Below, piece after piece: positions 31,309 through 35,497 of a stretch of DNA of 64,000 nucleotides. The notes beneath the pieces were generated by a model. The model ran no database searches and was not told where the DNA came from. It saw only the letters and a program-made list of their open reading frames with translations. Every line of letters starts with the position of its first letter. Position 1 is the stretch's first letter. This DNA is from Nesterenkonia sp. LB17 (GTDB lineage Bacteria > Actinomycetota > Actinomycetes > Actinomycetales > Micrococcaceae). The translations under genes were made by a program, and so were the position numbers. Where the stretch lies: assembly GCF_022565915.1 (NCBI RefSeq), contig NZ_JAJOYX010000001.1, positions 124,001 to 188,000 of the forward strand, written 5' to 3'.

Positions 31309-32994
31309 TCACTCCACGCTGAACTCGATCCGGTGCTGCCCGGTCGCGGCGTTCGGGATCGGGTCGCGCCGCTCATCTGTCTGGGTCTCCCCGGCGGCGT
31401 TGATCGCGCGCACGGTCACCGAGTGCCGGCCGGAGTCGACGTCGGCGAAGGCATGTCGCCACTGCCGCCAGGTGTCGATGCTGACCTCGTCGCCCAGCTC
31501 CACGGCCTCCCAGTCGCCGTCGTCCAGGCGGACCTCGACGGCTTCGATGCCCTCATGCTGGGCCCAGGCGCTGCCGGCGACGACGAGCTCCTCCCCGCTG
31601 GCCACCCGGGCCAGCGGCCGAGGCACATCGATGCGTGAGGCGACCAGTATCGGTCCCTCGGCGTCCCAGCCGCGGTCGGTCCAGTAGGCGGTCTCGGCGT
31701 CGAAGCGGGTGACCTCCAGCTCGGTGACCCACTTGGTCGCCGAGACATAGCCGTAGAGGCCCGGGACGACCATTCGAGCCGGGTAGCCGTGCTGTGCCGG
31801 CAGCGGCTCGCCGTTCATGCCCACCGCGAGCAGGCAGGCGCGGTCCTCGTCGGTGAGCACCTCCAGCGGGGTCGACGCCGTCCAGCCGTCGATCGAGCGG
31901 GAGAGCACCATGTCAGCCTCGCTCAGCGGGCGGGCCCGGGCGAGCAGCTCGCGGATCGGGTAGCCCAGCCAGGTGGCGTTGCCGAGCAGATCTCCGCCGA
32001 CCGGGTTCGAGACGCAGGCCAGCGTGATGTGGTGCTCCTGCAGCGGCAGGTCGAGCAGCTCGTCCATGTCGATGGTGACCTCCTCCTCGACCAGGCCATG
32101 GATCCGCAGCGTCCAGTCCTGCGGGGCGAGCTCCGGCACCACCAGCGCGGTGTCGATCCGGTAGAAGTCGTTGTTCGGGGTGATGAACGCCGGCACCCCG
32201 TCCACGCCGACGCTGGCGCCGGCGGGGATAGCGGCAGCGCGCACCGCGGGGGAGGGGAGGACCAGCCGCGCCGCCGCCGACCCGGCCTCGCGACCGAGCG
32301 CGTTGACGGAGCGTCCGAAGGTGATCGAGCCCGCGGCGATGGCGGTGCCGGCGGCGGCCAGGCCCAGGAAGCGACGCCGTGAATGGGCGCGCTCGTCCTC
32401 GGTGCTGGGGCGGGTGGCAGCGGCGCCCCGGGGATCTGCCGGCCGGTCGAGCGGAGCCGATCCGGCCCGATCCGCCTGAGCAGCCTCGGCGGCCCGGGTG
32501 AGCCCGGTGGCGGCGCCGCTGAGCAGCAGCAGGCTGAGGATCCCGAGTCCGGCGCCGACCAGCGTGGGCAGCGCATCGAGCGGGGAGCTCTCCGGGCGCA
32601 GCAGCACCACGATCAGCAGGAGCACCGCGACGGCGGAGAACAGGCCCACGGCCAGGCGCAGACTGCGTCGGGCCAGGGCCCCGATCAAGGCCGCCAGGAT
32701 CATCCCGACGACGCCCATGCTCAGGTAGAGCACCAACTTGTTGTTGCTGCCGAAGTAGGAGATCGCAAAGTCCTGCAGCCAGCTGGGGGAGAGCGTGATG
32801 ATCGTGGAGCCCAGCGAGACCAGCGGCGAGGAGGCGGGTCCGAAGAGCTGGGAGACCAGATCTGCCACGCCGAGGAAGATCGCGGCTGCGAGGACGCCGG
32901 CGATCAGATGGGGGATCAGACGGCGCCGTCGTCTCGCCGGCCGGGAGGATCCGCGGCCGGCGGTTCCGGGGGTCTCGTGCACTGTCTCAGTCAT
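31309..32994 (-). CDS. Membrane-anchored sulfite-oxidase-type molybdopterin oxidoreductase
   Basis: A 561-aa protein with a hydrophobic N-terminal part of about four helices, then RRRFLGLAAAGTAIAAGS, a Tat-like segment, and an extracytoplasmic sulfite-oxidase fold. The molybdenum-liganding Cys327 is in TLACVSNPVGGDLLGNATW. The block QHGYPARMVVPGLYGYVSATKWV and a C-terminal dimerisation domain (WRQWRHAFADVDSGRHSVTVRA) complete it. No haem domain is visible, and the substrate is unknown. It lies convergent to modABC and directly after rskA. The ATG is 7 nt after a CCATCC-N15-CCGAAC element, so it is likely transcribed by SigK as a leaderless mRNA. Confidence 0.88.
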   Translation of the reverse strand: MTETVHETPGTAGRGSSRPARRRRRLIPHLIAGVLAAAIFLGVADLVSQLFGPASSPLVSLGSTIITLSPSWLQDFAISYFGSNNKLVLYLSMGVVGMILAALIGALARRSLRLAVGLFSAVAVLLLIVVLLRPESSPLDALPTLVGAGLGILSLLLLSGAATGLTRAAEAAQADRAGSAPLDRPADPRGAAATRPSTEDERAHSRRRFLGLAAAGTAIAAGSITFGRSVNALGREAGSAAARLVLPSPAVRAAAIPAGASVGVDGVPAFITPNNDFYRIDTALVVPELAPQDWTLRIHGLVEEEVTIDMDELLDLPLQEHHITLACVSNPVGGDLLGNATWLGYPIRELLARARPLSEADMVLSRSIDGWTASTPLEVLTDEDRACLLAVGMNGEPLPAQHGYPARMVVPGLYGYVSATKWVTELEVTRFDAETAYWTDRGWDAEGPILVASRIDVPRPLARVASGEELVVAGSAWAQHEGIEAVEVRLDDGDWEAVELGDEVSIDTWRQWRHAFADVDSGRHSVTVRAINAAGETQTDERRDPIPNAATGQHRIEFSVE

Positions 32995-33001
32995 ATCTTC
33001 A

Positions 33002-33028
33002 GTTCGGAGCCGAGCCGCGGTTGGATGG
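33002..33028 (-). promoter_or_regulatory. SigK-type promoter for the molybdoenzyme gene
   Basis: On the minus strand CCATCC (33028-33023), 15 nt, CCGAAC (33007-33002), then 7 nt to ATG 32994. Both hexamers and the spacing are identical to the element before the fasciclin gene, and close to the CCATCC / CCGAAT consensus known for mycobacterial SigK. Confidence 0.75.
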
Positions 33029-33056
33029 GTGGACGGTGATCTCTGCAGGACCTGGG

Positions 33057-33875
33057 TCAGAGGTCCGCGAGCACCACCGGATCGCTGGTCGGCTCTTCAG
33101 AGCCGCCCGCGGGCTCCACGGTGACTCCGAAGATCATGTCCTCATCCATCGCGAGGTCGGTCAGCAGCTCGGTGCTGGTGCCGGTCATCAGGCCGGCGCT
33201 GTGCGGGCCCTCCTCGTCGATCAGCCATAGCTGCATGGTCTGATCCGCGGGGAGCTCGGGCATGTCGTGCGGGGTCAGATGCAGCATCTGCTCGGAGACC
33301 GAGTAGGCCAGCGTGACGCGCCCGCCGCCGGTCGCCTCGGCCTCGGTGAATGCCAGGTCCGAGGCGCTGAGCAGCCGCTGGGTGCGCTCGCGCTCAGCCT
33401 CGGCGACGGTCAGCGACTCCTGGATCTGGGTGGTGTCGTGCTGCTGGTTGATCAGCGCGCCGGCAAGCACCGCGGAGAGCAGCAGCAGCGTGGAGGCCGC
33501 GAGGGCGAAGAGCATGGTGGTCGGACGTCGAGTCTTTTCTGGGCCTGGGCCTGCGCCTGCGCCTGGGCTGGTGACGGGGGCCGAGGCCCCAGCCGCGGTG
33601 GGTGCAACAGGTTCCGCAGCGTGCTCAGGTGCAGTCCGCTCCGGCGCAGCCTGCTGGTGCAGCCGGGGGATGCTGAGGATCGCCGCCTCGGTCTCGGCGC
33701 TGGGGGCGACGGCATCGTCGGACCCGGCCAGCAGCCCCAGCGTCTCGCAGAAGGACTGGACCTCTTCGGCGAAGTCGGGATCAGCGGCTTCGAGGTCGAG
33801 GGCCTCGATCATCTCGGCGTCGGCCAGGGTCCCGAGGGCAAGGCCGGCTGCCAGGTATTCGCGATCGGCGTTCAT
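33057..33875 (-). CDS. rskA: Anti-sigma-K factor (RskA family)
   Basis: A 272-aa single-pass membrane protein that holds SigK inactive. The first ~75 residues form the cytoplasmic anti-sigma domain, followed by a Pro/Ala-rich linker, a membrane helix at about 120-143 and an external RskA domain (YSVSEQMLHLTPHDMPELP, then MQLWLIDEEGPHSAGLM). It shares an ATGA overlap with sigK, so sensor and sigma factor are made in step. Release usually occurs by regulated proteolysis of the membrane protein; the signal is not evident from sequence. Confidence 0.88.
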   Translation of the reverse strand: MNADREYLAAGLALGTLADAEMIEALDLEAADPDFAEEVQSFCETLGLLAGSDDAVAPSAETEAAILSIPRLHQQAAPERTAPEHAAEPVAPTAAGASAPVTSPGAGAGPGPEKTRRPTTMLFALAASTLLLLSAVLAGALINQQHDTTQIQESLTVAEAERERTQRLLSASDLAFTEAEATGGGRVTLAYSVSEQMLHLTPHDMPELPADQTMQLWLIDEEGPHSAGLMTGTSTELLTDLAMDEDMIFGVTVEPAGGSEEPTSDPVVLADL

Positions 33876-34557: not shown

Positions 34558-34603
34558 GGCGGCGCCCCGCACCCCAACAGATGGGTGGGTGCCGAGCGCC
34601 GCC
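34558..34603 (-). terminator. GC-rich hairpin after the fasciclin gene
   Basis: Outer arms GGCGGCGC and GCGCCGCC pair perfectly, with an inner GCACCC/GGGTGC pair. It lies about 55 nt after the fasciclin stop on the minus strand and upstream of sigK. It probably ends the fasciclin transcript; no clear U-run follows. Confidence 0.55.
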
Positions 34604-34657
34604 TTGGTCGTTCTTCAACTGCGCGGAAGGGTCAGCGGTGACCGTTCCCGCCGAGGA

Positions 34658-35392
34658 TCACTCCTCCTCGGCTGCTGCCGGCATCAGGACGGCGTCGACC
34701 ATGTAGACGGTGGCGTTGGAGGTCATCACGCCGCCACAGACGAGGCCGGCGTCGTCGAAGGTGAGGTCGTCGCCCTCGCCCTCGATGGTCACGGTCGCGC
34801 CGTTGACGGTCTCGTGCTCACCGGCGATCTCATCGGGAGACATCTGGCCGGGGATGACGTGGTAGGTCAGCACCTCGGTCAGCATGTCAGCGTCCTCGAC
34901 CACTGCGTTGAGGTCTTCCTCGGGGATCTCGCCGAAGGCGTCATCGGTGGGGGCGATCACGGTGAACTCGTCACCGTTGAGCGTGTCGACCAGGTCGACA
35001 TCGGGGTTCAGCTCGCCGGAGACTGCCGCGGTCAGCGTGGTCAGCATCGGGTTGTTCGAGGCTGCGGTGGCCACTGGATCCTGTGCCATGCCGCCGACGG
35101 AGCCGTCACCCTCGGGGACTTCCTCGGCGTAGGCCTCACAGGAGGCGCCGACCAGGTTCGCCGCGGGATCTGATTCGTCCATGGACTCTTCGTCATCCAT
35201 CGACTCTTCCTCGTCCATGGACTCGGTCTCTTCGTCGGTGGCCTCGGTCTCGGTGCCCTCGGTCTCCTCGGTCATCTCCTGGTCGGTCTCTGCCGCCGGC
35301 TCCTCGGCGTTGTCGCCGCAGGCGCTGAGGCCCAGCAGGGCCACCATGCCGATTCCGAGCAGGGAAGTGGTTTTGCGCATCTCGGTCTTCAT
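34658..35392 (-). CDS. Fasciclin-domain lipoprotein (MPT70/MPT83-like)
   Basis: A 244-aa exported lipoprotein. The ATG at 35392 has AGGAG 8 nt upstream and gives a signal peptide with lipobox GLSAC (Cys25). A strongly acidic Glu/Asp/Met-rich linker of repeated ESMDDEE-like units follows, then one FAS1 domain ([33 protein letters not shown] H1 box, [13 protein letters not shown]2 box, VDAVLMPA end). The same pairing of SigK/RskA control with FAS1 lipoproteins is known for mpt70/mpt83 in mycobacteria. A CCATCC-N15-CCGAAC promoter lies ~80 nt upstream. Confidence 0.9.
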
Positions 35393-35470
35393 GACTGAAT
35401 CTCCTGTTGGTCGCACGTTGGTCTGATTCACAGCCACTGATCGTGGTGTCGACCAGGCCATGTACGCAGA

Positions 35471-35497
35471 GTTCGGAACCAGAGCAGGATCGGATGG
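35471..35497 (-). promoter_or_regulatory. SigK-type promoter for the fasciclin gene
   Basis: CCATCC (35497-35492), 15 nt, CCGAAC (35476-35471) on the minus strand. Transcription would begin near 35464, giving a leader of about 70 nt that includes the AGGAG site. Hexamers match the second copy at 33002-33028 base for base. Confidence 0.75.

What the first reader, a model, noticed from the sequence alone, without database searches (positions are those of the whole stretch)
31309..35497. Two identical SigK-type promoters tie a molybdoenzyme and a fasciclin lipoprotein into one regulon
Seen: CCATCC-N15-CCGAAC occurs on the minus strand at 33028-33002 and 35497-35471, before the molybdopterin oxidoreductase and the fasciclin gene, with sigK and rskA between them. 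Known: mycobacterial SigK uses a closely similar CCATCC / CCGAAT promoter and controls FAS1 lipoproteins MPT70/MPT83. Inferred: here SigK also drives a sulfite-oxidase-type enzyme, as a leaderless mRNA (7 nt from -10 to ATG). The link between this sigma factor and a molybdoenzyme is the new part.
Basis: partly seen in the sequence, partly recalled or inferred. Interest (0 to 1): 0.7.

Follow-up and report, generated by a model that had tools for sequence, protein, structure and literature searches.

The report
Stress-switch regulon with a molybdenum enzyme
In this bacterium (probably a Nesterenkonia) and many relatives, a stress-responsive switch protein called SigK very probably turns on both a surface protein and a membrane-anchored molybdenum enzyme, which hints that the switch runs a repair system for oxidised proteins outside the cell; this is inferred from sequences and not yet tested.

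Summary
In detail: CCATCC-N15-CCGAAC lies 7 nt before the molybdoenzyme ATG and before the fasciclin lipoprotein gene, on either side of sigK-rskA. The inference also holds by comparison. In the genus, all 18 molybdoenzyme genes found beside sigK carry the motif 7-8 nt before ATG; the two found away from sigK do not. Of 154 distinct homologues 54 have it exactly, only at spacings 15-16 of the 13-18 tried; permuted motifs averaged 0.06. Searched without regard to genes, motif-N7-ATG occurs 13 times in 80 genomes and 6 of the 13 start a molybdoenzyme gene. The second -35 base (CCATCC or CAATCC) follows a Ser/Thr difference in the DNA-reading helix of the neighbouring SigK (26/26 and 22/26). In 80 family genomes the fasciclin gene was found in 40, all with the enzyme.

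Beyond the finding: lipoproteins of two unrelated families behind such promoters carry methionine-rich tails (about 8% Met against 0.4% in 25 other lipoprotein tails), and secreted-protein genes carry copies of the fasciclin promoter. The nearest known design is ECF16-MrpX-MsrPQ of proteobacteria. A methionine-oxide repair cycle is my preferred function (about 0.4), but the enzyme is nearer to sulfite oxidase than to MsrP. There are no transcription or enzyme data.

The parts
33002..33028 (-). SigK-type promoter of the molybdoenzyme gene: -35 CCATCC 33028-33023, 15-nt spacer, -10 CCGAAC 33007-33002; ATG 7 nt later (predicted leaderless)
31309..32994 (-). Molybdoenzyme, 561 aa: helices read as four membrane spans, twin arginine R206-R207 and a fifth span, then a sulfite-oxidase fold with invariant Mo-ligand Cys327
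   Evidence: Pfam PF00174; alignment A1; model pLDDT 87; fold search. Spans read from helices, no TM predictor was run
33057..33875 (-). rskA, anti-sigma-K factor, 272 aa
   Evidence: PF10099 81.8 bits
33872..34480 (-). sigK, ECF sigma factor, 202 aa; KSR in the region 4.2 helix; no Cys at the columns of M. tuberculosis C133/C183
34552..34609 (-). Strong hairpin between the fasciclin gene and sigK (possible attenuator; no clear U tract)
   Evidence: -94.8 kcal/mol for the 177-nt gap, z -3.9, 0 of 200 shuffles as stable
34658..35392 (-). Fasciclin (FAS1) lipoprotein, 244 aa, MPT70-like, with an acidic Met-containing tail after the lipobox
   Evidence: PF02469; PDB 1nyo E 9e-54
35471..35497 (-). 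SigK-type promoter of the fasciclin gene: -35 35497-35492, 15-nt spacer, -10 35476-35471

Best explanation
This is a SigK-RskA regulon. When RskA releases SigK, SigK-RNA polymerase starts at CMATCC-N15/16-HCGAAY promoters. One gives a leadered fasciclin-lipoprotein mRNA, with probable read-through past a hairpin into sigK-rskA. One gives a leaderless mRNA for a membrane-anchored, Tat-exported molybdenum enzyme. In Nesterenkonia others drive secreted proteins. Shown here, by sequence comparison only: the motif, its conservation, its co-variation with SigK and its specificity for these genes. Inferred: SigK dependence, start sites, read-through, function. Most likely function (about 0.4): repair or scavenging of oxidised methionine outside the membrane, with the Met-rich tails of the SigK lipoproteins as targets or sinks and the molybdoenzyme as reductase, triggered by light or other envelope oxidation. 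The confidence given is for the regulatory part.
For: Exact motif upstream of 54 of 154 distinct molybdoenzyme genes, 42 with an in-frame start 5-9 nt after the -10 (34 at 7 nt); zero at spacings 13, 14, 17, 18; up to 300 permuted motifs gave mean 0.06, max 3. Nesterenkonia: 18 of 20 genes, all 18 with a start at 7-8 nt; the two misses (L125, L127) are copies away from sigK. Gene-blind search of 80 genomes: 13 motif-N7-ATG sites, 6 at molybdoenzyme starts. SigK helix KSR with CCATCC 26 of 26; KTR with CAATCC 22, CCATCC 4. SigK and enzyme together in 18 of 30 Nesterenkonia genomes, each alone in 1, neither in 10. Fasciclin gene in 40 of 80 family genomes, all 40 with the enzyme. Met in linkers: 8.0% in 55 fasciclin proteins against 1.9% in 31 other lipoproteins; six of the 31 are themselves behind SigK-type promoters and hold 2-5 Met each, the other 25 hold 4 Met in all (my tally).
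Against: No expression data. 100 of 154 homologues lack the exact motif and 75 still lack it at one mismatch. Outside Nesterenkonia, of 42 genes with sigK in the fetched locus 20 have it exactly and 30 with one mismatch. M and H degeneracies were chosen after seeing relatives. Sequences are related, so P values overstate. The enzyme's fold and profile scores are nearer to SorA/sulfite oxidase than to MsrP, no heme-ligand histidine is conserved in its membrane part, and no MsrQ-like partner was recognised among the genes annotated here (no genome-wide search was made), so methionine-oxide reduction is a guess. 7 of the 13 gene-blind sites are not at a molybdoenzyme. One of 55 fasciclin tails has no Met (L136). 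G104 (82% complete) has the fasciclin gene with the motif but no detected enzyme or close SigK.
Confidence: 0.88

Rival explanations
1. Same SigK regulon, but the molybdoenzyme is a sulfite dehydrogenase (or oxidises another small sulfur compound) that detoxifies the envelope; the fasciclin protein is a separate output and the Met-rich tails bind metal or are incidental.
For: Best structural matches are SorA and chicken sulfite oxidase (E about 1e-22), MsrP only about 1e-10; SorA is the best NCBIfam model.
Against: Far below every sulfite dehydrogenase cut-off; the position five residues after the Mo-ligand Cys is Val in 52 of 54, where SorA has Arg (the role of that Arg in sulfite binding is recalled). 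The fasciclin gene is never found without the enzyme in 80 family genomes.
Confidence: 0.35
2. The promoters belong to another ECF sigma factor of the cell, and sigK-rskA is only a neighbour.
For: Own genome has six further ECF-like matches to SigK at E <= 1e-12; 16 of 92 molybdoenzyme genes without sigK in the fetched locus still carry the exact motif.
Against: -35 variant follows the helix of the adjacent SigK; in the genus the enzyme co-occurs with SigK; the same motif type precedes second-type sigK genes. Genes without local sigK may be served by a SigK elsewhere in the genome.
Confidence: 0.06
3. The motif before the molybdoenzyme is a chance match inside the end of an sigK-rskA-enzyme operon, and the enzyme is transcribed only by read-through.
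For: In some clusters no exact motif precedes the enzyme (e.g. L018, L020, L023).
Against: Motif and 7-nt gap conserved in Nesterenkonia and in enzyme genes unlinked to sigK (L015, L028, L030, L062); permuted controls near zero.
Confidence: 0.03

Closest known systems
SigK-RskA regulon of mycobacteria (mpt83-sigK-rskA cassette, MPT70/MPT83)
   Same: Sigma factor, anti-sigma factor, MPT70-type fasciclin lipoprotein and promoter type; the cassette and its SigK site are described as conserved even in Yersinia (passages of PMC7509140).
   Different: A molybdoenzyme joins the regulon; SigK lacks the two redox cysteines; the fasciclin tail is Met-rich.
ECF16 modules: SigF-NrsF with YedYZ-MrpX, and BcrS-AbcS with BcrXQP
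   Same: ECF sigma/anti-sigma pair controlling an MsrP-type molybdoenzyme and a Met-rich exported protein (passages of PMC4623255 and PMC8315932).
   Different: Other ECF group and anti-sigma family; the Met-rich part is a tail on structured lipoproteins; the enzyme has its own membrane anchor and is not MsrP by profile.
Sco3746 family (five-TM Sec/Tat molybdenum-cofactor protein of Streptomyces)
   Same: Four membrane spans, then twin arginine and a fifth span, then a MoCo domain outside (passages of PMC5449189).
   Different: No conserved histidines in the membrane part, whereas Sco3746 is predicted to bind two hemes b. Direct sequence comparison with Sco3746 was not made.
Sulfite oxidase / SorA, and MsrP
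   Same: Fold and invariant Mo-ligand cysteine.
   Different: Below all matched NCBIfam equivalog cut-offs; no Arg five residues after the cysteine; polytopic anchor.

Membership tests
SigK (ECF18/ECF19) | Closest sequence match among ECF sigma factors is SigK | tested here: met
   PDB 4nqw E 6e-30, next 7e-20; best NCBIfam model PRK09646 SigK 179.5 bits, below its cut-off of 226
SigK (ECF18/ECF19) | Adjacent RskA-type anti-sigma factor | tested here: met
   PF10099 81.8 bits against cut-off 29.4
SigK (ECF18/ECF19) | Cysteines 133 and 183 (94% of ECF18, 56% of ECF19 per PMC7509140, section read) | tested here: not met
   No Cys at those columns in 24 aligned sequences, by reading; not required for ECF19
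SigK (ECF18/ECF19) | CCATCC / CCGAAY target promoter | tested here: met
   the published consensus is recalled, not read
SigK (ECF18/ECF19) | Target genes depend on the sigma factor | not testable with these tools
   needs a mutant or in vitro transcription
MPT70/MPT83 fasciclin lipoprotein | FAS1 domain closest to MPT70, lipobox | tested here: met
   1nyo E 9e-54, next 2e-23; LSAC lipobox in the translation
Sulfite dehydrogenase / oxidase | Passes a curated equivalog model (SorA, SorT, SoxC) | tested here: not met
   107, 70 and 90 bits against 600, 570 and 420
Sulfite dehydrogenase / oxidase | Arg at the fifth residue after the Mo-ligand Cys | tested here: not met
   Val in 52 of 54, Ile and Leu in one each; role of the Arg recalled
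Sulfite dehydrogenase / oxidase | Oxidises sulfite | not testable with these tools
   needs purified enzyme
MsrP methionine sulfoxide reductase | Passes the MsrP equivalog model | tested here: not met
   64.7 bits against 207
MsrP methionine sulfoxide reductase | MsrQ heme partner | tested here: inconclusive
   none among the genes annotated; no genome-wide search made; no conserved TM His in the enzyme
ECF16 / MrpX / MsrP module | NrsF-type anti-sigma factor | tested here: not met
   the anti-sigma factor matches RskA_C only
Sco3746 five-TM MoCo family | Twin arginine before TM5 | tested here: met
   R206-R207 in 53 of 54, X in the other row
Sco3746 five-TM MoCo family | Heme-ligand histidines in TM2-4 | tested here: not met
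   no column of residues 1-235 with His in 30% or more of 54 rows

The most novel reading that the evidence does not exclude
SigK-RskA of these Gram-positive actinobacteria runs an envelope methionine-oxidation cycle: disordered Met-rich tails on SigK-controlled lipoproteins (fasciclin and an unrelated repeat lipoprotein) absorb singlet-oxygen or hypohalite damage, and a membrane-anchored sulfite-oxidase-fold enzyme of a new subclass reduces them back. It would be an independently built counterpart of the proteobacterial SigF-MrpX-MsrPQ system and would say what MPT70/83-type fasciclin proteins and SigK are for.
Probability: 0.33. Interest if true: 0.85.

Novelty: new variant of a known kind. 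Interest (0 to 1): 0.66.

Why it matters
What SigK senses is open; PMC9861118 calls the stimuli obscure (passage). A conserved molybdoenzyme partner, nested with the fasciclin gene, and Met-rich tails give concrete biochemical tests that can be run in harmless soil actinobacteria. The case also suggests a regulon growing by promoter duplication: copies of the fasciclin promoter and leader sit before secreted-protein genes, one still preceded by what looks like the end of the neighbouring gene. The co-variation of the sigma helix with the -35 base gives a simple code for SigK promoters.

Tried and rejected
Chance motif: rejected. Another ECF sigma factor: disfavoured. Conserved RNA structure in fasciclin leaders: RNAalifold gave no pair on 17 chosen leaders, though a TGACAGCC box after the -10 is conserved. 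Redox-cysteine switch of SigK: absent here. Histidine-ligated heme in the membrane anchor: no conserved His. I meant to compare fasciclin Met content with and without the enzyme; no fasciclin-positive genome of the 80 lacked the enzyme, so it could not be done. The claim that the contig-6 promoter copy carries the end of the gene upstream of the fasciclin gene is by eye; a tblastn at E 1e-20 did not list that gene in L004 or L009, the piece being short.

Failed or poor calls: one search used a pattern one base too long (spacing 16 only) and was redone; searches folded the enzyme without an alignment (pLDDT 41) and were not used; one search stopped at a missing file and was redone. Limits: the controls are only the 31 lipoprotein linkers that passed my filters in the fetched loci; similar repeat lipoproteins L102 and L107 did not pass and are not in the 31. 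Alignment A1 used 53 of the 60 fetched family loci plus the window. One search counts 'sigK in locus' only within the fetched stretch. One of the 18 Nesterenkonia genes (L126, G094) is a broken copy, counted as it stands. The lists were typed.
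Full report
What was checked. The window is part of a 2.82-Mb genome in 10 contigs. Its genus is Nesterenkonia by inference: the same-genus genome G102 has a contig of the same length as the Nesterenkonia sp. Act20 record. Gene identities come from Pfam; the fasciclin protein's best solved relative is MPT70 and the sigma factor's is SigK.

Whole genome. The loose pattern gives 9 matches. CCATCC-N14/15-TCCGAAY gives 4: the two of the finding and two on other contigs, each 74 nt before a 272-aa secreted protein that has no Pfam match and a weak, below-cut-off match to a C-terminal sorting domain. 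Promoter and leader of these two align with those of the fasciclin gene. The copy on contig 6 is preceded by what looks by eye like the 3' end of the gene upstream of the fasciclin gene, so the regulon seems to have grown by promoter duplication. Several relatives in the genus have such secreted-protein promoters too.

Conservation of the molybdoenzyme promoter. Molybdoenzyme genes came from 80 family genomes (53 positive, 60 loci fetched), 30 genus genomes (19 positive) and a named collection (80 kept of 587 confirmed stretches, itself a capped list). After removing duplicates 154 genes remained. Exact CMATCC-N15/16-HCGAAY is upstream of 54; 42 have an in-frame start 5-9 nt after the -10, 34 of them at exactly 7 nt. 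With one mismatch allowed the counts are 79 and 58. Spacings 13, 14, 17 and 18 give zero. Up to 300 permuted motifs averaged 0.06 with a maximum of 3. By setting: Nesterenkonia 18 of 20; other genes with sigK in the fetched locus 20 of 42 exact and 30 with one mismatch; genes without sigK in the locus 16 of 92 exact and 31 with one mismatch. The recount for the genus shows all 18 with a start 7 or 8 nt after the -10, and the two misses are the copies without sigK beside them. The M and H degeneracies were chosen after seeing relatives, so these counts are not blind. The gene-blind search is more so: CCATCC or CAATCC-N15-HCGAAY-N7-ATG occurs 13 times in 80 whole genomes, and 6 of the 13 start a molybdoenzyme frame. 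One of the six, in G009, is a 225-codon frame with the enzyme's N-terminus. The other seven sites start unrelated or very short frames.

Which sigma factor. Among 52 distinct SigK-like helices with a motif within 3.5 kb on the same strand, those with KSR have CCATCC (26 of 26); those with KTR have CAATCC in 22 and CCATCC in 4. The exceptions are three Nesterenkonia loci and one Brevibacterium locus. In the 14 loci where two promoters were listed, both had the same variant. Within the genus a close SigK (E below 1e-60) and the enzyme co-occur in 18 of 30 genomes, each alone in one, neither in ten. Relatedness of the genomes makes all P values optimistic.

Cluster. Fasciclin, sigK, rskA and the molybdoenzyme lie together in 24 of the 60 family loci fetched around the enzyme, besides the window, and in 20 of the 80 named loci, among them Brevibacterium, Glutamicibacter, Arthrobacter, Jiangella and Actinomadura (in two of the 20 sigK and rskA are on the opposite strand). 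In 80 family genomes the fasciclin gene was found in 40, all of which have the enzyme; 13 have the enzyme alone and 27 neither (Fisher 2e-11; by genus 19 both, 0 fasciclin only, 5 enzyme only, 8 neither, P 1e-4). G104, an 82%-complete Nesterenkonia genome, has the fasciclin gene without a detected enzyme. Fasciclin genes carry the exact motif in 38 of 55 cases.

The enzyme. A model from 54 aligned sequences has pLDDT 87: helices that I read as four membrane spans, a twin arginine (53 of 54) before a fifth, then a sulfite-oxidase fold. Solved structures rank SorA and chicken sulfite oxidase first (E about 1e-22 to 1e-19) and MsrP later (about 1e-10). It passes no NCBIfam cut-off. The Mo-ligand cysteine C327 is invariant, but the position five residues later is Val in 52 of 54 where SorA has Arg. 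The architecture resembles Sco3746 (passages of PMC5449189), whose authors note that distant homologues of that protein occur as separate polypeptides such as MsrP/MsrQ; the heme histidines are not conserved here. Molybdate-transport-like genes lie at 27400-30109: the binding protein by Pfam, the permease and ATPase by my reading of the frames.

Met-rich tails. Linkers after the lipobox cysteine average 8.0% Met in 55 fasciclin proteins and 1.9% in 31 other low-complexity lipoprotein linkers from the fetched loci (rank test P 4e-10, sequences related). Six of those 31 belong to a repeat lipoprotein that itself follows a SigK-type promoter and average 7.7%; by my tally the other 25 contain four Met in all, about 0.4%. 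Two unrelated lipoprotein families behind the same promoter type thus share Met-rich tails. One of the 55 fasciclin linkers (L136) has none.

Interpretation. The regulatory statement is strong by comparison and untested by experiment. For function I favour a methionine-oxidation repair or sink system, by analogy with SigF-NrsF-YedYZ-MrpX and BcrS-AbcS-BcrXQP (passages of PMC4623255 and PMC8315932), at about 0.4, with sulfite chemistry the main rival at about 0.35. A light or UV trigger is suggested, not shown, by the adjoining carotenoid-type genes, the fall of RskA after UV in Act20 (passages of PMC8965627), light induction of M. kansasii fasciclin genes (passages of PMC9861118), and the Rhodobacter singlet-oxygen work, where R. 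capsulatus RpoE-ChrR resemble SigK-RskA and a fasciclin gene of R. sphaeroides is induced (passages of PMC7074977).

Novelty. Searches for SigK with fasciclin and molybdopterin (0 papers), anti-sigma-K with sulfite oxidase and fasciclin (0 papers), SigK/RskA with sulfite oxidase, molybdoenzyme or fasciclin (6 papers listed, of which I saw passages of two and the listing of the rest), and ECF19 showed no report of a SigK-molybdoenzyme link. Subscription papers and the ECF classification tables were not available, so priority is not settled.

Noticed in passing
L004 and L009 (own genome, contigs 3 and 6): Two near-identical secreted-protein genes (HSEHG near the mature start, GVDTG-like C-terminus) each behind a copy of the fasciclin promoter and leader; the contig-6 copy is preceded by what looks like the end of the gene upstream of the fasciclin gene.
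   Followed up: partly
window 37221-41864: Carotenoid-type genes (NUDIX/idi-like, phytoene synthase, phytoene desaturase-like, UbiA prenyltransferase) next to the SigK cluster; the first three also beside it in L172 (Nesterenkonia sp. Act20).
   Followed up: partly
window 27400-30109: Molybdate-transport-like binding protein, permease and ATPase genes on the other side of the molybdoenzyme, separated from it by an aminotransferase gene.
   Followed up: no
L092, L094, L102, L107, L138, L139, L158, L159: A repeat lipoprotein of about 445-485 aa (cut short in L092; the one sent to Pfam, L138, had no match) with a Met-rich tail follows a SigK-type promoter; a second SigK-like gene lies near it in at least G092, G093, L158 and L159.
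   Followed up: partly
L133, L142, L147: A small (81-99 aa) protein with one hydrophobic stretch and QIGQFQ at its end follows a SigK-type promoter in G088, G101 and G104; the one sent to Pfam (L142) had no match.
   Followed up: no
L152-L165 and L171: A second SigK-RskA locus type without fasciclin or molybdoenzyme in the fetched stretch, often with the CCATCC promoter close upstream of its own sigK; in L160 and L161 the motif instead precedes a secreted-protein gene.
   Followed up: partly
fasciclin leaders, e.g. L012, L019, L043 (alignment A4): A conserved RTGACAGCC box about 5 nt after the -10 in many Arthrobacter-group fasciclin leaders; no consensus RNA structure found.
   Followed up: partly
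L126/L128 (genome G094): Both the molybdoenzyme and sigK frames of this genome contain a stop codon, i.e. look broken, while the promoter motif is intact.
   Followed up: no
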